42,075 nucleotides of DNA from Chitinophagales bacterium (GTDB taxonomy: Bacteria > Bacteroidota > Bacteroidia > Chitinophagales > CAIOSU01), in contig JBBDNB010000007.1 of assembly GCA_040877935.1 (NCBI GenBank), forward strand, positions 1 to 42,075, given 5' to 3'. The stretch's first letter is position 1; each line of letters starts with the position of its first letter. This document shows positions 28,727 to 39,857 of this stretch, one piece after another. The position numbers and the translations under genes were made by a program. A model generated the notes under the pieces. That model worked only from the letters and a program-made list of their open reading frames with translations, had not been told where the DNA came from and made no database searches.

Positions 28727-29159
28727 TCTCTAATTTTGCTTTTTCGTTCAGTGCCAGGGCATAGAGCTTGATTTGCTTGATCATGGCATTCAACCCATTG
28801 GAGCGTTGCGGACTTAAATGCGCCTTTAAACCAATTTTATCAATGAATTCCAATTCGGCATTGACTACATCTTCAGGCTTTTGGCCAGAAAATACGCGCA
28901 GGAGCAAAGCTATAATTCCCTTCGTAATCACAGTATTGCTATCCGCCCTTAATTCCAACAAGCCGTTTTCCTCAAAGGCGTGCAACCAAACTTTTGATTG
29001 ACAACCTTTTACCAATCGATCATCGGTTTTGTATTTATCTTCCAACTCGGGCATTTCCTTTCCCAGATCAATAATATAGTCATAGCGATCCATAGGATCT
29101 TCAAACATCCCAAACTCTTCTACTATTTCAGCTTCTATGTCTTTGATTGCTTGCGGCAT
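28719..29159 (-). CDS. sufE: Cysteine desulfurase partner SufE
   Basis: 146-residue sulfur acceptor that takes the persulfide from SufS and passes it to SufBCD. The acceptor Cys53 is in VKGCQSKVWLHA. The C-terminal SPQRSNGLNAMIKQIK helix is typical. Its ATG overlaps the sufS stop by one base, so translation is coupled to sufS. Confidence 0.95.
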   Translation of the reverse strand: MPQAIKDIEAEIVEEFGMFEDPMDRYDYIIDLGKEMPELEDKYKTDDRLVKGCQSKVWLHAFEENGLLELRADSNTVITKGIIALLLRVFSGQKPEDVVNAELEFIDKIGLKAHLSPQRSNGLNAMIKQIKLYALALNEKAKLENE

Positions 29160-30406
29160 TATTTCAACATTTTTATCGCCCTATTTAAGGCTTCTACAAA
29201 CAAATCTATTTCTTCTTCGCTGTTGTATAGGGCAAATGAAGCCCTACAAGTACCTTCAATTCCAAAGCGGTTCATCAGCGGCTGACAACAATGATGGCCC
29301 GTTCTGAGGGCAATTCCCTGTTTGTCGAGCAATACACCAATATCGTAGCTGTGAATTCCGTCTATTAAAAACGAAACCAATCCGGCAGAATGCATGGAAT
29401 TGCCATATCTTTTAAAACCTTCAATTTCATTGAGTTGATTCAGCGCATATTGCAACAGGTTTTGTTCATGCGCTTCAATATTTTCAATGCCCCATTTATT
29501 CATGAAATCTACGGCTGCTGCCAGTCCTATTCCCCCAGCAATATTGGGAGTACCAGCTTCAAATTTATAGGGCAGCTCATTAAAAGTAGTTTTTTCAAAG
29601 CGCACTTCTTTTATCATTTCGCCACCGCCTTGGTAGGGTGTCATTTTATTGAGCAAATCTTCTTTTCCGTACAAAACGCCTGTGCCAGTTGGTCCAAACA
29701 TTTTATGTCCTGAAAAAGCAAAGAAATCACAATCCAGTTTTTGCACATCTACCTTTAAATGAGGTACAGCTTGTGCGCCATCAAGTAAAGTAATTGCTCC
29801 GTGTTTTTTGGCCATTTGTATCAGCTCCTCTACGGGATTGATAATTCCCATTGCATTGGAGACATAAGATACAGCAAGGATTGCCGTCTTGTCATTGATG
29901 ATTTTGGAGGCTTCTTCCAATATGATTTCCCCACTGTCGTGAATGGGCAAAATGCGCAATGTAGCGCCTGTTTTTTCAGCGGCAATTTGCCAGGGCACAA
30001 TATTGGAATGGTGCTCCATTGTACTGATGACAATTTCATCGCCCGGTTTTAAAAATTCCTGGGCATAGCTGTGCGCCACCAAATTGATTCCCTCCGTAGT
30101 TCCCTTGGTGAAATTGATCAGTTTTGAATCGGGCGCATTGATGAAATCAGCCAATTTTTGTCTGGCAGCCTCATATGCATCGGTGGCTTTTTGGCTTAAA
30201 TAATGTACGCCCCTGTGAATATTGCTATTGTAGGTGCTGTAATATTCATTGATGGCCTCAATTACCTGAATGGGTTTTTGGGAAGTCGCTCCATTGTCAA
30301 AATACACCAGTGGCTTTCCATTTATCTTTTCTTTTAGAATTGGAAATTCCGCTCTTACTTCCTCAATATTGAAAGCTGTAGTTTTTGTCAATGTATCTGT
30401 ACTCAT
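29159..30406 (-). CDS. sufS: Cysteine desulfurase SufS
   Basis: PLP enzyme that takes sulfur from cysteine for Fe-S cluster assembly. 415 residues. PLP Lys235 is in FSGHKMFGPTG; catalytic Cys373 is in RTGHHCCQPLMNRF, the group II (SufS) form with a short loop. FDNGATSQKP near residue 37 and HRGVHYLSQKAT are usual. It is 9 nt from sufD and overlaps sufE. Confidence 0.97.
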   Translation of the reverse strand: MSTDTLTKTTAFNIEEVRAEFPILKEKINGKPLVYFDNGATSQKPIQVIEAINEYYSTYNSNIHRGVHYLSQKATDAYEAARQKLADFINAPDSKLINFTKGTTEGINLVAHSYAQEFLKPGDEIVISTMEHHSNIVPWQIAAEKTGATLRILPIHDSGEIILEEASKIINDKTAILAVSYVSNAMGIINPVEELIQMAKKHGAITLLDGAQAVPHLKVDVQKLDCDFFAFSGHKMFGPTGTGVLYGKEDLLNKMTPYQGGGEMIKEVRFEKTTFNELPYKFEAGTPNIAGGIGLAAAVDFMNKWGIENIEAHEQNLLQYALNQLNEIEGFKRYGNSMHSAGLVSFLIDGIHSYDIGVLLDKQGIALRTGHHCCQPLMNRFGIEGTCRASFALYNSEEEIDLFVEALNRAIKMLK

Positions 30407-30415
30407 TTTGTGTTT

Positions 30416-31723
30416 TTAAGCAGTTTCAAAGCACTGATTAAAGTAATCCTTCAAGTGATTTTTCAATTCCGGGATACTGATATAATCCAGAACTTCACTC
30501 AAAAATGCTTGATTTAAAATGGCTTTTGCTTTTTCCTTTTCAATGCCCCTGGCTTGCAGGTAAAAGAGTTGGTCTTCATTCATCTGACCTGTTGTGGCAC
30601 CGTGACTGCATTTTACATCATCGGCATATATTTCCAATTCAGGTTTGCTGTTGATAGTCGCCTTTTCTGAAAGCAATAGGTTTTTGTTGGATTGAAAGGC
30701 ATTGGTGCGCTGCGCATCTTTCCTTACCAATACTTTTCCATTGAAAACCGCTGTGGAATTGTCATTGTAAGTACCCTTGAACAATTGGTTGCTTTGGCAA
30801 TCTTCCACCGCATGATCTACCAATATGTGATTGTCGGCATGGCTTTTCCCATTTTGGAAAGACAAACCATAAATATTTGTTTCTGCAAAAGGCCCTGTCA
30901 ACTGCACATAGGTATTGTTTCGCAATTTTTGCACATCCTTGATAAATGACCAGGATTTGAAATAACTGTTTTTTTCCTGTTTTACTTTTTGCGATTGCAC
31001 ATGAATGCCCGGGCAATTTTCATTTTCCAATCTGTACCATTCTACCCTGGCACTGGCATTTACGAAAATTTCCTGCAAATCGTTGTAAAGAAAAGTAGCC
31101 GCATTTTTACTTTCAAAATATTCTGCAAATTTCACTTGCGCATTTTCCCCAACATCTATAATGCTCCTATTTTGGACAATTCCATTTTCGGGGATGGCAT
31201 CAAAATGATGGACTATGACAACGGGATGCTCTATGATTTTCCCTGCTTTTATTTTCAAAAAGAGGGCATCTTTTAGAAAAGCTGTATTCAATAAATGCAG
31301 TGGCTCTGTTTCGTGATTCTCGATGGAATCAATGTATTTTTCAATAAAAGCTTTTCCCTCACTGCTTTTCAATTCTTCTTGAACCGAACTTAAAATCAGG
31401 TTTTGGTCAATGATTTTAGAAGCTTCTTGATTGATGTTTCCATTGCTCAATACAATCAAGTTCACCTTTTTCATGCCCAAAACAGGCGATTGTATTTTTG
31501 GATTGGAAACCGGAATATCTTCAACAGGTGTGAAATTGCCTTTGGTCCAAGCTGCAAGATTGCTGTATTTCCAGCTTTCTACTTTAGAGCTGGGCAATCC
31601 TGTTTTCTCAAAATCTTCAAGTGCGTTTTTTTTCTTTTCCTTAAAGGCCTCATTGAGGCTGCCATTTAGGGCATTCACTTGATTTTCGAAAGCTGTTTTG
31701 TATATGCTGATATCAGTTTTCAT
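30416..31723 (-). CDS. sufD: Fe-S cluster scaffold subunit SufD
   Basis: 435-residue beta-helix partner of SufB in the SufBC2D scaffold. The N-terminal half is variable; the C-terminal half holds the conserved region, with DNHILVDHAVEDCQSNQLFK, the VRKDAQRTNAFQSNKNLLLS stretch, KPELEIYADDVKCSHGATTG and an ARGIEKEKAKAIL helix. The HGATTG His of SufD is retained. It is 8 nt after sufC. Confidence 0.96.
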   Translation of the reverse strand: MKTDISIYKTAFENQVNALNGSLNEAFKEKKKNALEDFEKTGLPSSKVESWKYSNLAAWTKGNFTPVEDIPVSNPKIQSPVLGMKKVNLIVLSNGNINQEASKIIDQNLILSSVQEELKSSEGKAFIEKYIDSIENHETEPLHLLNTAFLKDALFLKIKAGKIIEHPVVIVHHFDAIPENGIVQNRSIIDVGENAQVKFAEYFESKNAATFLYNDLQEIFVNASARVEWYRLENENCPGIHVQSQKVKQEKNSYFKSWSFIKDVQKLRNNTYVQLTGPFAETNIYGLSFQNGKSHADNHILVDHAVEDCQSNQLFKGTYNDNSTAVFNGKVLVRKDAQRTNAFQSNKNLLLSEKATINSKPELEIYADDVKCSHGATTGQMNEDQLFYLQARGIEKEKAKAILNQAFLSEVLDYISIPELKNHLKDYFNQCFETA

Positions 31724-31731
31724 AAATAATT

Positions 31732-32484
31732 TTAAACGGCTGTTTCAGTTCTGATCCAATCGTATCCTTTCTCTTCCAATTCCAGGGCGAGTGATTTGTC
31801 TCCGGTTTTTACAATTTTTCCTTCTGCCAATACATGCACAAAATCCGGCACTATATAATCGAGCAATCGCTGGTAGTGCGTAATTACGATAAACGAGCGA
31901 TTTTCATTTCTCAACTTGTTCACTCCATCTGATACAATGCGCAATGCATCGATATCCAAGCCCGAATCGGTTTCATCTAAAACGGCTAATGTAGGATCAA
32001 GCATGGCCATTTGGAAAATTTCGTTTTTCTTTTTCTCTCCTCCGGAAAATCCTTCATTTACGGCACGGGAAATCAACTTGTCGTCAATTTCAACAGATTT
32101 CATTTTTTCGCGCATGGTTTTCAAAAACTGCGCTGCATTCAACGGCTCTTGCCCTCTGTATTTCCTGGTTTCGTTTACAGAAGCTTTCATAAAATTGGCC
32201 ATGGATACGCCCGGGATTTCTACCGGATATTGAAATGCCAGGAATACGCCTTCCTTGGCACGGATTTCAGGATCCCACTCCAATAGGTTTTTGCCATTGT
32301 AAATGATTTCTCCTTTGGTAACTTCATAGCCTTCCCTTCCTGCCAATACGGAAGCCAAGGTACTTTTCCCGGCTCCATTTGGACCCATTATGGCATGTAC
32401 TTCACCTGGGTTTATTTCTAGGTTGAAATCTTTTAGGATTTCCTTGCCCTCTATTTCTACACTTAGGTTTTTAACTTTTAACAT
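31732..32484 (-). CDS. sufC: SUF ATPase subunit SufC
   Basis: 250-residue ABC-type ATPase that powers conformational change in the SufBCD scaffold. Walker A GPNGAGKST (34-42), a Q-loop within FLAFQYPVEIPGV, the NEGFSGGEKKKNE signature and Walker B LAVLDETDSGLD are all present. No membrane domain is encoded nearby, as expected. A 102-nt A+T-rich gap separates it from sufB without a terminator. Confidence 0.97.
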   Translation of the reverse strand: MLKVKNLSVEIEGKEILKDFNLEINPGEVHAIMGPNGAGKSTLASVLAGREGYEVTKGEIIYNGKNLLEWDPEIRAKEGVFLAFQYPVEIPGVSMANFMKASVNETRKYRGQEPLNAAQFLKTMREKMKSVEIDDKLISRAVNEGFSGGEKKKNEIFQMAMLDPTLAVLDETDSGLDIDALRIVSDGVNKLRNENRSFIVITHYQRLLDYIVPDFVHVLAEGKIVKTGDKSLALELEEKGYDWIRTETAV

Positions 32485-32586
32485 TTATTTTATTTTAAAC
32501 TCTAAATTTTAATTACTAAAATCTAAATAATTCTAAAATTTATCAAACTGCTATTGAACTTCAATTTAGCTTTTCATTTTTACTGA

Positions 32587-34038
32587 TTATCCAACCGAAC
32601 CTTCCAAGCTCACTTCCAATAATTTTTGGGCCTCAGCGGCAAATTCCATCGGTAGTTTTTTAAATACTTCCTTGCAATAGCCATTGATGATCAAATTCAT
32701 GGCCACTTCTGGATCCAAGCCTCTTTGATTGCAATAGAACATGATGTCCTCGCCAATTTTGGAAGTTGTGGCTTCGTGTTCTACTTGAGCGGTTTTATTT
32801 TCAATTTCCAAATAAGGAAAAGTATGCGCACCGCATGTTTCTCCAATCAGGAGCGAATCGCATTGGGAGAAATTATAGGCTTTATCGGCTGTTTTGTTCA
32901 TCCGTACCAATCCGCGATAACTGTTTTGGCTTTTTCCGGCAGATATACCTTTTGATACAATTCTGCTTTTGGTGTTTTTGCCAATATGCAACATTTTGGT
33001 TCCGGTATCGGCTTGTTGGTAATTATTGGTTACGGCCACCGAGTAAAATTCTCCAATGGAATTGTCGCCTTTGAGGATTACGCTGGGATATTTCCAGGTA
33101 ATGGCAGAACCGGTTTCAACTTGTGTCCAAGAGATTTTTGAATTTGCGCCATTGCAAATGCCTCTTTTGGTTACAAAATTGTAAATACCGCCTTTTCCAT
33201 TTTCATCACCGGGGTACCAGTTCTGAACGGTGGAGTATTTAATTTCCGCATTTTCCTGAGCTACCAATTCTACTACTGCAGCGTGCAATTGGTTTTCATC
33301 GCGCATGGGAGCGGTGCAGCCTTCCAGATAACTTACATAACTGCCTTCTTCGGCCACAATCAATGTGCGCTCAAACTGCCCGGTATTTTCCGCATTGATC
33401 CTAAAATAGGTGGACAATTCCATAGGGCAGCGCACGCCTTTGGGAATATACACAAATGAGCCATCGGAAAAAACGGCTGCATTCAGTGCTGCGAAATAAT
33501 TATCCCTTACTGGCACAACTGAACCCAAATATTTTTTGACCAATTCGGGGTGATTGTGCACGGCCTCGCTAAATGAGCAGAAAATTATCCCTTTTTTAGA
33601 CAATTCTTTTTTGTAGGTAGTCGCTACCGAAACGGAATCCATCACAGCATCTACGGCTACGCCCGTTAATCTTTTTTGCTCTTGCAGGGAAATTCCCAAT
33701 TTGTCGAAAGTAGCTCTCAATTCAGGATCTACCTCGTCAAGGCTGTCCAATTTTTTCTTGGGTTTGGGCGCAGAATAATAAATCATATTCTGGTAGTCGA
33801 TGGGAGGGTGGTGCAAATGGGCCCAACTGGGTTCCTTCATTTTTAGCCAGGCTTTATAAGCTTTCAGGCGATATTCCAACATCCATTCGGGTTCATTCTT
33901 TTTGGCAGAAATAAAGTGAATGGTTTCCTCTGTCAATCCCTTTGGAGCACTATCGGCATCAAAGTCGCTACTGAAGCCATATTTATACTTTCCTCCGGTT
34001 ACTTCATCTATAATTTTCAGGTCTTCTGATTCTGACAT
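32587..34038 (-). CDS. sufB: Fe-S cluster scaffold subunit SufB
   Basis: 483-residue main scaffold on which new Fe-S clusters form, in complex with SufC and SufD. Conserved blocks include [18 protein letters not shown], the [19 protein letters not shown] segment, [19 protein letters not shown] and SCAH-like [20 protein letters not shown], which bears the cluster Cys. [21 protein letters not shown] in the C-terminal region is standard. First gene of the suf operon, preceded by a good promoter. Confidence 0.97.
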
Positions 34039-36573: not shown

Positions 36574-37440
36574 CTATTTTTCAGCTTGCTGCTTTTGATA
36601 TTTCTTTTCCAGCATTTTTTCCAGCTTTTCCCTTTTTCGGTAGAGCATCGCATTGATTTTCAGCATTAAGCCGGGCATCCATCTTTTGGCTATGTATAGC
36701 ATTTTGGATTTCCAGGGCAGGATAATATAAAACTGTTTTTTGCTGGCTGCTTTCAGGATAGTACGCGCCACTGCATCTGGTTCCAGCCCCGAAGTAGCAA
36801 TCATCAGCTCCCCTAATCTTCTTCCTTCGCTATCGGTACTTACATCTTGCATGATATTGGTTTTGAAAAACGTAGGCATTACCACTGATACACTGATGTT
36901 TTCATCTTTTAGTTCAGCATGTAAGGTTTCTGAAAGTGAAAGCACCGCTGCTTTGCTCACATTGTAGGGACCCATTCCTGCAGCACTTGAAAATGCGGCC
37001 GCACTTGCAATATTGATAATGGTGCCCGAACCTTGTTTTTTCATTTGCGGAATAAAAAATTTACAGCCAAAAACCACAGCCATTTGGTTGATGCCTATGA
37101 CTTTGTTCCAATACTCAATACTCAGTTCATCTGTCTTTCCAGAGGCACCAATGCCCGCATTGTTTATCAATACATCTATACTGTTTGTTTTTGCAAGAAA
37201 ATCGGAGCAAATTTCTTGAAATCTGGTAGAGTCGGTAATGTTTAAGGAATAGGACTGTATTTTCCCTCCCGATTGCTCGGCAAGTTCCTGTGTTTCTTTT
37301 AGTCCATTTGTGTTGAGATCGCAAATTCCGATGGTCCAATTCTGGGCAGCTAATTCCAAGGTCAATGCCCTGCCCAGGCCAGAAGCAGCTCCGGTAATAA
37401 AAGCGGTTTTATTGGGCGCTGATTTTTTAAAGTATTCCAT
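36574..37440 (-). CDS. Short-chain dehydrogenase/reductase
   Basis: 288-residue Rossmann-fold oxidoreductase. NAD(P) motif TGAASGLG (16-23), NNAG (93-96), and catalytic Ser in IASAAAFSS with Tyr159-x3-Lys163 (YNVSK). The last 40 residues are basic and coiled-coil-like (KREKLEKMLEKKYQKQQ), a tail seen in membrane-associated SDRs. It is divergent from the sterol methyltransferase-like gene with a 253-bp gap. A role with hydroxysteroid-type substrates is possible but rests only on position. Confidence 0.88.
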   Translation of the reverse strand: MEYFKKSAPNKTAFITGAASGLGRALTLELAAQNWTIGICDLNTNGLKETQELAEQSGGKIQSYSLNITDSTRFQEICSDFLAKTNSIDVLINNAGIGASGKTDELSIEYWNKVIGINQMAVVFGCKFFIPQMKKQGSGTIINIASAAAFSSAAGMGPYNVSKAAVLSLSETLHAELKDENISVSVVMPTFFKTNIMQDVSTDSEGRRLGELMIATSGLEPDAVARTILKAASKKQFYIILPWKSKMLYIAKRWMPGLMLKINAMLYRKREKLEKMLEKKYQKQQAEK

Positions 37441-37693: not shown

Positions 37694-38674
37694 ATGTCAA
37701 CTGCCCAGCACGAGAAAGTCTCGGATTACAACAAGGTTTTTAAGGAAAAGGACTACGATAAGCGCAGCAAAGCAGCACAGAAAGTCACCGATAATTTCTA
37801 CACACTCATTACCAAATTTTACGAGCGCGGTTGGGGCCAATCCTTTCATTTTGCACCCCGCCAAAAAGGAGAGGATTTTCAGGCCAGCATCCTGCGCCAC
37901 GAGCATCACCTTTCCGATCAGCTCAAGCTCGGCCCAAAGGACAAAGTATTGGATGTGGGCTGCGGTATTATGGGCCCCGCTCGGAACATTGCCAAATATT
38001 CGGGCGCAAACATCACCGGACTTACCATCAATCAACACCAGGTAAATCGCTGCAAGGAATTGAATGCGGCATCAGAAGCTAAGGATTTGCTACAGGTACA
38101 GCAAGGAGATTTTATGGATATTCCATTTCCTGACAACAGCTTTGATAAAATGTATGCGATAGAAGCTTTGTGCCATGCCCCCAGTATTTTGGGCGTTTAC
38201 CAGCAGATTTCACAAAAACTAAAGCCGGCCGGAACCGCTTGTTTCTATCAATGGGCACTCACCGATAAGTACGATCCCAGTAATGCCGAACATGTAAAAG
38301 CCAAGGAAATGATAGAATACGGCAATGGCATCACAAGGCTAAGCACTATTCAGGAAATCAATCAGGCCATAGATGATGCCGGATTTGAAAAAGAATTGAG
38401 TATCGACCTGGCAAAACACGATGCTGAAAACAATATGCCCTGGTACGCAACCCTTCAGAGTGGTTGGTCTTTGTCGCAAATAAAGCATACCAAAGTGAGC
38501 CGCACATTCACCCACTATCTGCTCCGAACACTGGAAGCATTTGGCATTGCCAAAAAAGGCGTAAGTCGTGCCCAAAAAATACTGCTGGTAGCGGCCGATG
38601 GATTGGTGGCCGGTGGCAAACTCGATATTTTCACTCCCATGCATATGTTTGTTGTGCGTAAAAAAGCGAATTGA
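37694..38674 (+). CDS. Sterol C-24-methyltransferase-like SAM methyltransferase
   Basis: 326 residues, similar in length to eukaryotic SMT/ERG6 (about 330-380). Signature regions of the family are retained: FYERGWGQSFHFAPR (42-56, sterol region I), the SAM motif VLDVGCGIMGPAR (85-97), YAIEALCHAP (154-163) and QWALTDKYDPSNAEH (186-200), as well as GDFMDIPFPDNSFD. These are the regions tied to sterol and SAM binding in fungal and plant enzymes. SMTs alkylate the side chain at C-24. Bacterial relatives are known only from a limited set. A Rieske oxygenase gene follows after 4 nt. Substrate is inferred. Confidence 0.85.
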   Translation: MSTAQHEKVSDYNKVFKEKDYDKRSKAAQKVTDNFYTLITKFYERGWGQSFHFAPRQKGEDFQASILRHEHHLSDQLKLGPKDKVLDVGCGIMGPARNIAKYSGANITGLTINQHQVNRCKELNAASEAKDLLQVQQGDFMDIPFPDNSFDKMYAIEALCHAPSILGVYQQISQKLKPAGTACFYQWALTDKYDPSNAEHVKAKEMIEYGNGITRLSTIQEINQAIDDAGFEKELSIDLAKHDAENNMPWYATLQSGWSLSQIKHTKVSRTFTHYLLRTLEAFGIAKKGVSRAQKILLVAADGLVAGGKLDIFTPMHMFVVRKKAN

Positions 38675-38678
38675 TATT

Positions 38679-39857
38679 ATGATTTTAAAAGTTTTGATTG
38701 TAGTACTGGCAATTCTTCTTGCTTTGGCAGCACTCATTTACCTGGTGCTTTTCAAGGACAAATCCAAAAAACGCCAAAAGCACGAATTCGATCCTGATTT
38801 TGAAGCAAAACGCGCAGAAACCTTTCCCCCGCCATTTCCCAATGGATGGTTCAACCTTTGCAGCTCCGATAGTATAAAAAAAGGAGAAGTAAAGGAGATC
38901 ACTGCATTTGGGCAAAAATTAGCGGTATTTCGCGCTGAAAATGGTGAAGTGGGCGTGGTAGATGCATATTGCCCGCATTTGGGTGCCAATTTATCCGATG
39001 GAAAAGTAGAGGACAACACATTGGTCTGCCCATTTCATGCCTGGAATTTTAATACCAAAGGAAAATGCGTGCACATTCCCTATTCGGATAATGGGCACAA
39101 TCAAGAACATACCAATGCCAATTGCTGGACAGTGAAGGAAAACTGGGGACTGATCTTGGTTTGGTACCACAGCGAAGGCAAAGCCCCCACTTGGGATACG
39201 GAAGGGTATCTGGAAGAATTGAAATCTTATAAATACTACGGCAGCACGAAGGAAACCTTGCGCATCCATTTGCAGGATTTTTCTGAAAATGGAGCCGATT
39301 ATGCGCACTTTAATGTAGTGCACGATTTACTGACCATCCCTTTTGCCAATAAATTTGTGCATGTAACCCACAAGACGCACATCGAGTTTGGCGAAGGCGA
39401 AGAAAAGCACATGGCCTATTTTTACGATCATGCGCAAATAGCCCGCAACAAAGACAATTCCCTTATAGAGAATGCCGGTGGCAAAGCCAAGGTGACCTAT
39501 TTTGGGCCTGGTTTTTTGGTATTTGCTTTTGATACCCGTTTTGGCTGCCCGATGATCGTGAAAACTTTCACCCCAATTGGAACACTCAAGGTCCGTATGG
39601 AAGACCATATTTATGCACCGCGCAATAATTTCAGCTTGGCCGTAAAATACATTGTGGGAGAAGCAGCAGTGCAGTTTCACGATGACATCAATATCTGGGA
39701 GCGCAAAACATTTGCCCGCAAGCCAATGCTGGTAAAAGGCGATGGGCCAATCATGAAAATGAGGAAATGGTACAGTCAGTTTTACTCAGAAGAAAATGCT
39801 TTTTCTGAAGCTGATGACGAAAAAGAACCCCTGTATCAGGAAGTGCAATCGAATTGA
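38679..39857 (+). CDS. Neverland/DAF-36-like Rieske oxygenase
   Basis: 392 residues from ATG 38679; an upstream frame overlaps the methyltransferase and has no sensible start. An N-terminal TM helix (2-25) precedes FPPPFPNGWFNL (the family's PPPYPNGWY motif), the Rieske cluster ligands Cys98-x-His100 and Cys117-x2-His120 (CPHLGAN, CPFHAW), then the non-heme iron site ENGADYAHFNVVH (His210, His215) and an Asp in FHDDINIWE (335/336). The pattern fits the animal cholesterol 7-desaturase family and bacterial relatives that oxidise sterols. An electron-donor reductase is not encoded here. Confidence 0.85.
   Translation: MILKVLIVVLAILLALAALIYLVLFKDKSKKRQKHEFDPDFEAKRAETFPPPFPNGWFNLCSSDSIKKGEVKEITAFGQKLAVFRAENGEVGVVDAYCPHLGANLSDGKVEDNTLVCPFHAWNFNTKGKCVHIPYSDNGHNQEHTNANCWTVKENWGLILVWYHSEGKAPTWDTEGYLEELKSYKYYGSTKETLRIHLQDFSENGADYAHFNVVHDLLTIPFANKFVHVTHKTHIEFGEGEEKHMAYFYDHAQIARNKDNSLIENAGGKAKVTYFGPGFLVFAFDTRFGCPMIVKTFTPIGTLKVRMEDHIYAPRNNFSLAVKYIVGEAAVQFHDDINIWERKTFARKPMLVKGDGPIMKMRKWYSQFYSEENAFSEADDEKEPLYQEVQSN

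What the first reader, a model, noticed from the sequence alone, without database searches (positions are those of the whole stretch)
37694..39857. Two-gene sterol-tailoring cassette in a Bacteroidota genome
A sterol C-24-methyltransferase-like gene and a Neverland/DAF-36-like Rieske oxygenase gene are separated by 4 nt on the same strand. Seen: signature regions of both families and complete Rieske and non-heme iron ligands. Known: these families act on the sterol side chain and ring B in eukaryotes and a few bacteria. Inferred: a joint pathway that alkylates and desaturates or oxidises a sterol. No squalene epoxidase or cyclase is visible, so the substrate may be made elsewhere or taken from eukaryotes.
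Basis: partly seen in the sequence, partly recalled or inferred. Interest (0 to 1): 0.85.

Follow-up and report, generated by a model that had tools for sequence, protein, structure and literature searches.

The report
Bacterial sterol side-chain methylation gene pair
A bacterium of the Bacteroidota carries two neighbouring genes that probably decorate a sterol which the same genome appears able to make itself by the plant-type (cycloartenol) route, so plant-like alkylated sterols may not be a mark of eukaryotes alone.

Summary
The two genes are as described: a sterol-C24-methyltransferase-family gene (SMT, 37694-38674 +) and, 4 nt on, a Rieske oxygenase of the KshA/Neverland type with an N-terminal hydrophobic helix (38679-39857 +). 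Its single P450 does not look like CYP51; no SdmA C-4 demethylase or C-8 isomerase reached its cut-off. Best reading: cycloartenol is made de novo, methylated at C-24 by the SMTs and oxidised on the rings by the Rieske enzyme. The pairing recurs: a KshA_C-type Rieske gene lies beside an SMT in 8 of 79 named SMT loci, in five or more phyla. Against a strict joint pathway: 14 of 24 genomes of the order with an orthologous Rieske show no cyclase. The Rieske reaction (C-7, C-9 or C-4) is open, and no eukaryotic SMT or Neverland sequence was available for trees. Bacterial SMTs (including lanosterol-type clusters of Rhodothermia), bacterial cycloartenol and sterol Rieske enzymes are known; the combination seen here was not found in the papers searched.

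The parts
37694..38674 (+). sterol-C24-methyltransferase-family gene (SMT_A), 326 aa, first gene of the pair
   Evidence: Sterol_MT_C 78 bits; tree; motifs
38675..38678 (+). 4-nt spacer between the two genes; one transcript is inferred
38679..39857 (+). KshA/Neverland-type Rieske non-heme iron oxygenase, 392 aa; N-terminal hydrophobic helix about residues 2-31, Rieske centre residues 98-120, iron site residues 203-215

Best explanation
The pair is a tailoring cassette of an endogenous, plant-type (cycloartenol) sterol pathway in a Bacteroidota. Step 1 (genes shown, activity inferred): squalene synthase and squalene epoxidase make 2,3-oxidosqualene. Step 2 (cyclase and its diagnostic residues shown, product inferred): the cyclase makes cycloartenol, which carries the C-24 double bond that SMTs need. 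Step 3 (genes shown, activity inferred): SMT_A, and a second copy SMT_B on another contig, transfer one or more methyl groups from SAM to C-24, giving for example 24-methylene- or 24-ethylidene-cycloartanol-type sterols. Step 4 (inferred): the Rieske oxygenase, anchored by its N-terminal helix, inserts oxygen into, or desaturates, the ring system of the methylated sterol, most likely near C-7 to C-9, the positions attacked by its relatives Neverland and KshA. As no CYP51-like P450 and no SdmA were found, the products may well keep their C-14 and C-4 methyl groups.
For: Cyclase of 763 aa: 714 bits to lanosterol synthase 1w6k, 148 bits to squalene-hopene cyclase 2sqc; trio Y420/H486/I490 at human positions 381/449/453, which PMC5101207 says is invariably Y, H, I in cycloartenol synthases (passages). 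Epoxidase 224 bits to SE; squalene synthase over its NCBIfam cut-off, 383.5 against 286.75. Two SMTs in the genome, 70% identical. Pairing in 8 of 79 named SMT loci, with KshA_C confirmed for all 8 Rieske proteins and Sterol_MT_C for all 8 methyltransferases. In 248 genomes of the order (counts): SMT and cyclase together in 5 genomes, 0.71 expected; Rieske ortholog and cyclase together in 10, 2.42 expected. 17 of 18 cyclases examined in the order carry Y/H/I; none of the 41 cyclases examined beside SMTs in the other named loci does. A cultured Bacteroidota, Fluviicola taffensis, makes cycloartenol (PMC4919349 section 13). The Rieske protein scores 77 bits to the SdmA model, cut-off 600, and its nearest fold is KshA (Z 28.9).
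Against: 14 of 24 genomes of the order with an orthologous Rieske show no cyclase at E 1e-50 (8 of 16 among genomes at least 90% complete), so that enzyme can do without endogenous sterols. The sterol genes of this genome are scattered over five contigs, and in G162 SMT, Rieske and cyclase lie on three contigs. SMT and Rieske ortholog together: only 3 genomes, 0.68 expected, p 0.02. The Fisher tests ignore kinship. No lipid data for this organism were found or sought beyond the papers. The trio predicts cycloartenol; parkeol or lanosterol is not excluded without an assay. Eleven FA_hydroxylase-family proteins were not classified and could hold C-4 or C-5 sterol enzymes, so the statement about the methyl groups is weak. 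The genome is a 63-contig assembly, so a missed gene is possible.
Confidence: 0.58

Rival explanations
1. The pair alkylates and oxidises sterols taken up from eukaryotes (prey, algae, detritus); the endogenous cyclase serves another end.
For: 14 of 24 genomes of the order with an orthologous Rieske show no cyclase; an SMT of a Chlamydiae MAG without other sterol homologs was active in vitro (PMC10070321, text and passages).
Against: This genome itself has squalene synthase, epoxidase and cyclase; SMT and cyclase co-occur in the order (5 seen, 0.71 expected).
Confidence: 0.14
2. The Rieske enzyme oxidises a C-4 methyl group, a KshA-type stand-in for SdmA, and starts C-4 demethylation.
For: SdmA is the best NCBIfam match, though only over the Rieske half; no SdmA above cut-off in the genome.
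Against: Three SdmA-like proteins of SMT loci carry VanA_C and score 400 to 415 bits to the SdmA model; this type carries KshA_C and scores under 80. L061 and L086 hold both types in one stretch, so they are unlikely to be interchangeable.
Confidence: 0.12
3. The methyltransferase does not act at C-24 but at another position or on another terpenoid (for example C-4, as in a nematode enzyme).
For: A nematode sterol C-4 methyltransferase exists (PMC6997595, title and start of abstract in a listing; that it is SMT-like is recalled). The window's clade stands on a long stem (0.88). Its third motif reads IEALCHAP where I recall IEATCHAP.
Against: Sterol_MT_C 78 bits; the tree puts it with Sterol_MT_C proteins of which many lie beside cyclase, epoxidase and ERG24-type genes; a close relative (L023) has IEATCHAP.
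Confidence: 0.08
4. The Rieske enzyme is a steroid-degrading 3-ketosteroid 9alpha-hydroxylase (true KshA) that happens to lie beside an SMT.
For: Best solved match by sequence is KshA, E 1e-37, and by fold, Z 28.9.
Against: N-terminal hydrophobic helix; far from the two KshA rows in the tree (path 6.25); adjacency to an SMT recurs in several phyla.
Confidence: 0.05

Closest known systems
Bacterial sterol methyltransferases of uncultured bacteria (Brown et al. 2023, PMC10070321)
   Same: Same protein family; members were shown there to methylate desmosterol at C-24, several in clusters with other sterol genes.
   Different: The text read describes clusters with erg and sdmAB homologs and cyclases of Groups 1 and 2; its main text does not hold the words Bacteroidetes or Bacteroidota. 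Here the cyclase has the cycloartenol trio, the SMT clade is separate (100) and the neighbouring Rieske is not SdmA-type.
Sterol gene clusters of Ircinia sponge symbionts, including Rhodothermia placed in Bacteroidota (PMC9531527)
   Same: SMT beside sterol genes in MAGs of a class that this paper counts to Bacteroidota (passages).
   Different: There the core is ERG24, CYP51 and lanosterol synthase; NCBI puts Rhodothermales in a phylum of its own. The window's genome is of another order, has no CYP51-like P450 and a cycloartenol-type cyclase.
Cycloartenol-making Bacteroidota (Fluviicola taffensis, PMC4919349)
   Same: Same phylum; cycloartenol-synthase-type cyclase.
   Different: F. taffensis had no homologs of sterol genes downstream of the cyclase and only cycloartenol (section 13). 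This genome has two SMTs, a Rieske oxygenase and an ERG24-type reductase.
Neverland / DAF-36 cholesterol 7-desaturase
   Same: Rieske and iron motifs of the family (PMC7609953 passages); KshA-like fold; KshA and Neverland are reported to cluster together (PMC4064121 passages).
   Different: Bacterial; next to an SMT; position of attack untested; no eukaryotic sequence could be compared.
KshA, 3-ketosteroid 9alpha-hydroxylase oxygenase
   Same: KshA_C domain over its full length, fold Z 28.9 with 27% identity.
   Different: Hydrophobic N-terminal helix, an SMT as neighbour, long tree distance.
SdmA, bacterial sterol C-4 oxygenase; msb cluster of a sponge symbiont (PMC7074536)
   Same: Rieske oxygenase and SMT in one bacterial sterol gene cluster (passages).
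   Different: Three SdmA-like proteins scanned carry VanA_C and score 400 to 415 bits to the SdmA model; this one carries KshA_C and scores 77. MsbB itself was not scanned.
Plant SMT1/SMT2 with cycloartenol synthase (recalled)
   Same: Cycloartenol as SMT substrate (inferred here), two SMT copies.
   Different: The two copies of this genome are sister rows in the tree (support 84), which points to a duplication within this lineage; plant rows were not available.

Membership tests
Sterol C-24-methyltransferase | Sterol_MT_C domain and SAM-binding methyltransferase domain | tested here: met
   78 bits (cut-off 21.7) and 64 bits (cut-off 21.2)
Sterol C-24-methyltransferase | Groups with Sterol_MT_C proteins from sterol gene clusters | tested here: met
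   67-row tree; the two weak matches L019 and L020 served as outgroup; eukaryotic rows and tocopherol or phospholipid methyltransferases were not in it
Sterol C-24-methyltransferase | C-24 methylation of a sterol | not testable with these tools
   needs an assay
Neverland/DAF-36 | C-X-H-X16-17-C-X2-H and E/D-X3-D-X2-H-X4-H | tested here: met
   residues 98 and 203; motifs from PMC7609953; the KshA row printed fits them too, so not discriminating
Neverland/DAF-36 | Clade with eukaryotic Neverland proteins | not testable with these tools
   no eukaryotic Neverland sequence in the collections or among the PDB matches
Neverland/DAF-36 | C-7 desaturation of a sterol | not testable with these tools
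   needs an assay
SdmA | NCBIfam NF052579 cut-off (600 bits) | tested here: not met
   76 to 77 bits, over model positions 16-175 only. The cut-off is strict: three SdmA-like proteins of other phyla scored 400 to 415
SdmA | VanA_C C-terminal domain, as in the SdmA-like proteins of SMT loci | tested here: not met
   KshA_C instead
KshA | KshA_C domain | tested here: met
   97.2 bits, profile 1-207 of 207
KshA | Steroid catabolic gene cluster with KshB | not tested
   KshB was not searched for; near the pair lie an SDR, SUF genes, a T9SS sorting-domain protein and genes without family
Cycloartenol synthase | Tyr/His/Ile at human positions 381/449/453 | tested here: met
   rule from PMC5101207
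Cycloartenol synthase | Cycloartenol as product | not testable with these tools
   needs expression
C-14-demethylated sterol pathway (CYP51) | A CYP51 in the genome | tested here: not met
   One P450 in the genome. None of the 60 chains shown (of 138 at E 1e-40) is named CYP51; they are BM3, carotene-hydroxylase and other types. Control: the P450 of the L061 sterol cluster, searched the same way, gave 56 chains, nearly all named CYP51 or sterol 14-demethylase. Genome 98.75% complete, so a missed gene is possible

The most novel reading that the evidence does not exclude
Some Bacteroidota make phytosterol-like lipids de novo by the plant-type entry: cycloartenol synthase followed by two C-24-methyltransferases, then ring oxidation by a membrane-anchored Neverland-type Rieske oxygenase, with no C-14 or C-4 demethylation. 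The SMT plus KshA/Neverland-type Rieske pair would be a repeatedly assembled sterol-tailoring module shared by several bacterial phyla.
Probability: 0.35. Interest if true: 0.8.

Novelty: new variant of a known kind. Interest (0 to 1): 0.58.

Why it matters
C-24-alkylated sterols are used as fossil markers of eukaryotes (PMC10070321). The bacterial cycloartenol makers in the passages I read were described as stopping at cycloartenol or nearly so (PMC4919349 section 13; Myxococcaceae in PMC12004948). A Bacteroidota with a cycloartenol-type cyclase, two SMTs and a Neverland-type oxygenase would be a bacterial source of alkylated sterols of another kind than the lanosterol-type clusters of sponge symbionts, and it gives a short gene set (cyclase, two SMTs, Rieske) for an E. 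coli expression experiment. It would also offer a bacterial relative of the enzyme that makes 7-dehydrocholesterol in insects and nematodes.

Tried and rejected
Substrate only from eukaryotes: weakened by the cyclase and epoxidase in the genome.

SdmA identity of the Rieske gene: rejected. CYP51 for the single P450: rejected (with as control). EBP-type isomerase: one match of 18 bits, cut-off 25.7.

A divergent SDR at 36574-37440 as third member: not kept, since by eye no SDR stands beside the pair among the ORFs listed for L024 and L029.

The Terriglobia pair L063 (Rieske overlapping a methyltransferase by 4 nt) was left out of the count of SMT-Rieske pairs because that methyltransferase shows no Sterol_MT_C. 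L024 and L032 are the same contig and count once. Of 42 named loci with a cyclase match over 200 bits, 41 gave a frame and were examined; L096 was dropped.

Solo Rieske orthologs: 16 contexts compared; no neighbour family recurs in more than 3 loci, so context gave no clue to the substrate.

Rieske tree: rooting on SdmA-type rows puts a very long branch (4.13) inside the Bacteroidota rows; the places of KshA, L063, L107 and L048 there are not to be trusted (long-branch warning in the output). Only the split of KshA_C type from SdmA type is used. The split that sets the window, L024, L029 and L144 apart from the other Bacteroidota Rieskes (99) is only suggestive. Both trees are of the quick kind, without bootstraps.

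PMC9531527 reports lanosterol-type sterol clusters, usually flanked by SMT or FDFT1, in Rhodothermia, which it counts to Bacteroidota; and in the phylum sample two SMT loci (L173, L174) have a cyclase of non-cycloartenol type (gap/H/V and A/H/V). The claim is narrowed to the combination with a cycloartenol-type cyclase or a KshA/Neverland-type Rieske. The overall interest was lowered from 0.60 to 0.58 for this.

Absence from print rests on searches (open-licence PubMed Central only; listings were capped at 10 to 30 rows where more papers matched). 'sterol methyltransferase' with 'Bacteroidota' gave 0 papers, which shows how word-bound these searches are, since PMC9531527 uses other words. Hoshino and Gaucher 2021 (PNAS), a likely place for an earlier listing, is not held and was not read; no supplementary files were read, so Supplementary Data of PMC10070321 may list Bacteroidota.
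Full report
OBSERVATION. The window is one whole contig (C7) of a 4.03-Mb, 63-contig genome, 98.75% complete. The first has Sterol_MT_C at 78 bits and SAM-methyltransferase domains; the second has Rieske (88 bits) and KshA_C (97 bits, whole model). The Rieske ligands C98, H100, C117, H120 and the iron motif E203, D207, H210, H215 are complete, and all eight are invariant in a ten-row alignment of KshA_C-type proteins from several phyla. The Rieske protein begins with a strong hydrophobic helix.

THE REST OF THE PATHWAY IS IN THE GENOME. A search of the own genome found a 763-aa cyclase on C56 that matches lanosterol synthase 1w6k (human, recalled) with 714 bits and squalene-hopene cyclase with 148. 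A squalene epoxidase lies on C28 (224 bits) beside a squalene synthase that passes its NCBIfam cut-off. Next to them I recognised by eye, without a family scan, a polyprenyl synthase, a type 2 IPP isomerase and an HMG-CoA reductase. An ERG4/ERG24 protein on C39 has a delta14-sterol reductase, 4quv, as best solved match, E 3.6e-36. A second SMT, 70% identical, stands on C18 without a Rieske neighbour. The one P450 matches terpene, carotene and BM3 types; as a control the P450 of a lanosterol-type cluster (L061), searched the same way, gave CYP51 chains. There is one KshA_C protein, the one in the window; the only match to the SdmA model is that same protein, far below cut-off; EBP gave nothing above cut-off. 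Eleven FA_hydroxylase matches are present and unclassified. The stretches around the pathway genes carry genes that look ordinary for this phylum and have similar G+C (0.38 to 0.41; the five sterol genes measured 0.42 to 0.46), so mis-binning is unlikely, though not excluded.

CYCLOARTENOL TYPE. At human positions 381, 449 and 453 the cyclase has Tyr, His and Ile. PMC5101207 (passages) states that the trio is invariably Y, H, I in cycloartenol synthases. Of 25 cyclase-bearing genomes among 248 of the order I examined 18: 17 have Y/H/I and one (L160) Y/H/V; seven were not fetched. Of 42 named SMT loci with a cyclase match, 41 were examined: 39 have A/H/V, L035 has Y/N/V and L070 gap/Q/T. Two loci of other members of the window's phylum (L173, L174) have gap/H/V and A/H/V. 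The SMT-linked cyclases of the other bacteria in this sample are thus of another type. In 14 of the 18 order genomes examined the cyclase shares its fetched stretch with a squalene synthase match; in the own genome it does not.

RECURRENCE OF THE PAIR. A scan of named genomes with an SMT alignment returned 79 loci (the best 80 of 208 confirmed stretches). In 8 of the 79 a KshA_C-type Rieske gene lies within 300 nt of, or overlaps as called, an SMT on the same strand: L029 (Saprospiraceae, 199 nt), L032 (Bacteroidetes HKST-UBA60, 8 nt), L048 (Polyangiaceae, 10 nt), L107 (Gemmatimonadota, Rieske first, 16 nt), and L059, L061, L085, L086 (unnamed bacterium, Nitrospirales, Nitrospinae, Nitrospira; Rieske first, 288, 92 and 91 nt, and overlapping in L086, where the SMT frame seems called too long). 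I take the last four for sponge symbionts from recall; their titles do not say so. KshA_C was confirmed for all 8 Rieske proteins and Sterol_MT_C for all 8 methyltransferases. In those last four the SMT belongs to a separate, diverged clade (100, stem 1.08) and the Rieske is only 25 to 30% identical to the window's, so pairing may have arisen more than once. Three SdmA-like Rieske proteins of such clusters are another family: VanA_C and 400 to 415 bits to the SdmA model. L061 and L086 hold both types.

TREES AND FOLD. In a 67-row SMT tree (quick method, SH-aLRT only) the window SMT is in a fully supported clade of 8 rows, seven of Bacteroidota and one MAG labelled Chlorobiota, on a stem of 0.88; the second SMT of the same genome is its sister (84). 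In a 56-row Rieske tree the KshA_C rows split from the SdmA-type rows with full support; inner placements near the long branches are not reliable. AlphaFold2 with ten rows gave mean pLDDT 78.5. VIA-align put KshA structures on top, Z 28.9, rmsd 3.3 over 305 residues, ahead of dicamba monooxygenase at 25.1. PMC4064121 (passages) reports that KshA clusters with Neverland.

CO-OCCURRENCE. In 248 genomes of the order: SMT match with E below 1e-60 in 7 (two further matches, G191 and G225, at 1e-21 and 1e-22 were dropped), Rieske ortholog at 55% identity or more in 24 (17 genomes with only weaker matches were dropped), cyclase in 25. Together: Rieske and cyclase 10 (expected 2.42, Fisher p 1.4e-5), SMT and cyclase 5 (0.71, p 1.3e-4), SMT and Rieske 3 (0.68, p 0.02). 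Among the 202 genomes at least 90% complete: Rieske 16, cyclase 20, both 8 (p 1.7e-5); SMT 5, cyclase 20, both 4 (p 3.4e-4). These tests ignore kinship. Against the joint-pathway reading, 14 of the 24 Rieske genomes show no cyclase, among them four members of the window's own family. Solo Rieske genes have no conserved neighbours in the 16 contexts compared. In a sample of 395 genomes of the phylum, 10 have an SMT match at E 1e-40.

MECHANISM. Shown: the genes, the motifs, the trio, the recurring adjacency. Inferred: oxidosqualene to cycloartenol; C-24 methylation by SAM at the side-chain double bond, as known for the family; then ring oxidation by the Rieske enzyme with electrons from an unidentified reductase. 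C-7 to C-9 is my best guess because Neverland (C-7) and KshA (C-9) are its relatives; C-4 is the main alternative. The hydrophobic helix fits a substrate that stays in the membrane.

KNOWN AND NEW. Papers and what I saw of them: PMC10070321 (parts 1 and 2 of 7 and passages): bacterial SMTs active in vitro; the words Bacteroidetes and Bacteroidota are not in the main text. PMC10202945 (parts 1 and 2 of 6): cholesterol in Enhygromyxa, SdmABC. PMC4919349 (passages, sections 10 and 13): Fluviicola makes only cycloartenol and has no downstream genes. PMC12004948 (passages): Myxococcaceae with cycloartenol-type cyclases seem not to modify it further, Cystobacter reductase excepted. PMC9531527 (passages): clusters of ERG24, CYP51 and lanosterol synthase, usually flanked by SMT or FDFT1, in 11 classes including Rhodothermia. 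PMC7074536 (passages): a sponge-symbiont cluster with a Rieske oxygenase and an SMT. PMC8172173, PMC12445004, PMC7609953, PMC13277303, PMC4064121, PMC5101207 (passages). PMC6997595 (listing only). Hoshino and Gaucher 2021 is not held. Within the searches listed under Tried and rejected I saw no report of an SMT together with a cycloartenol-type cyclase in a Bacteroidota, nor of an SMT paired with a KshA/Neverland-type Rieske gene. Each part is of a known kind; the combination is a new variant.

VERDICT.

Noticed in passing
L132, L133, L134, L145 (own family) and L135-L147: Orthologs of the window's Rieske protein stand alone, without conserved neighbours, and in 14 of 24 such genomes of the order no cyclase was found; their substrate is unexplained.
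   Followed up: partly
L059:3299-5713, L061:4561-6713, L085:3612-5769, L086:6547-8702: MAGs of other phyla carry a second, diverged SMT paralog beside a distant KshA_C-type Rieske gene; in L061 and L086 the same stretch also has a lanosterol-type cluster and an SdmA-type gene.
   Followed up: partly
G000, eleven places listed: Eleven FA_hydroxylase (sterol desaturase superfamily) matches in one 4-Mb genome; none classified.
   Followed up: no
L063:6489-8524: Terriglobia MAG: KshA_C Rieske gene overlapping by 4 nt a methyltransferase without Sterol_MT_C, in a stretch that also has SMT, cyclase, epoxidase, P450 and ERG24-type matches.
   Followed up: partly
L178 (G503:C121:14851-15675): SMT match with one TGA and one TAG inside: decayed gene or sequence error.
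   Followed up: no
L070: A 3.6-kb contig labelled Patescibacteria holds a cyclase fragment and an SMT; possibly mis-binned.
   Followed up: no
window 29159-34038: SUF iron-sulphur assembly genes (SufB, SufC, SufD, SufS) on the minus strand, a few kb from the Rieske gene; likely chance neighbourhood.
   Followed up: no
L009:6333-8188: ERG24-type reductase directly downstream of an SDR, overlapping it by 4 bases; possible second two-gene sterol unit.
   Followed up: no
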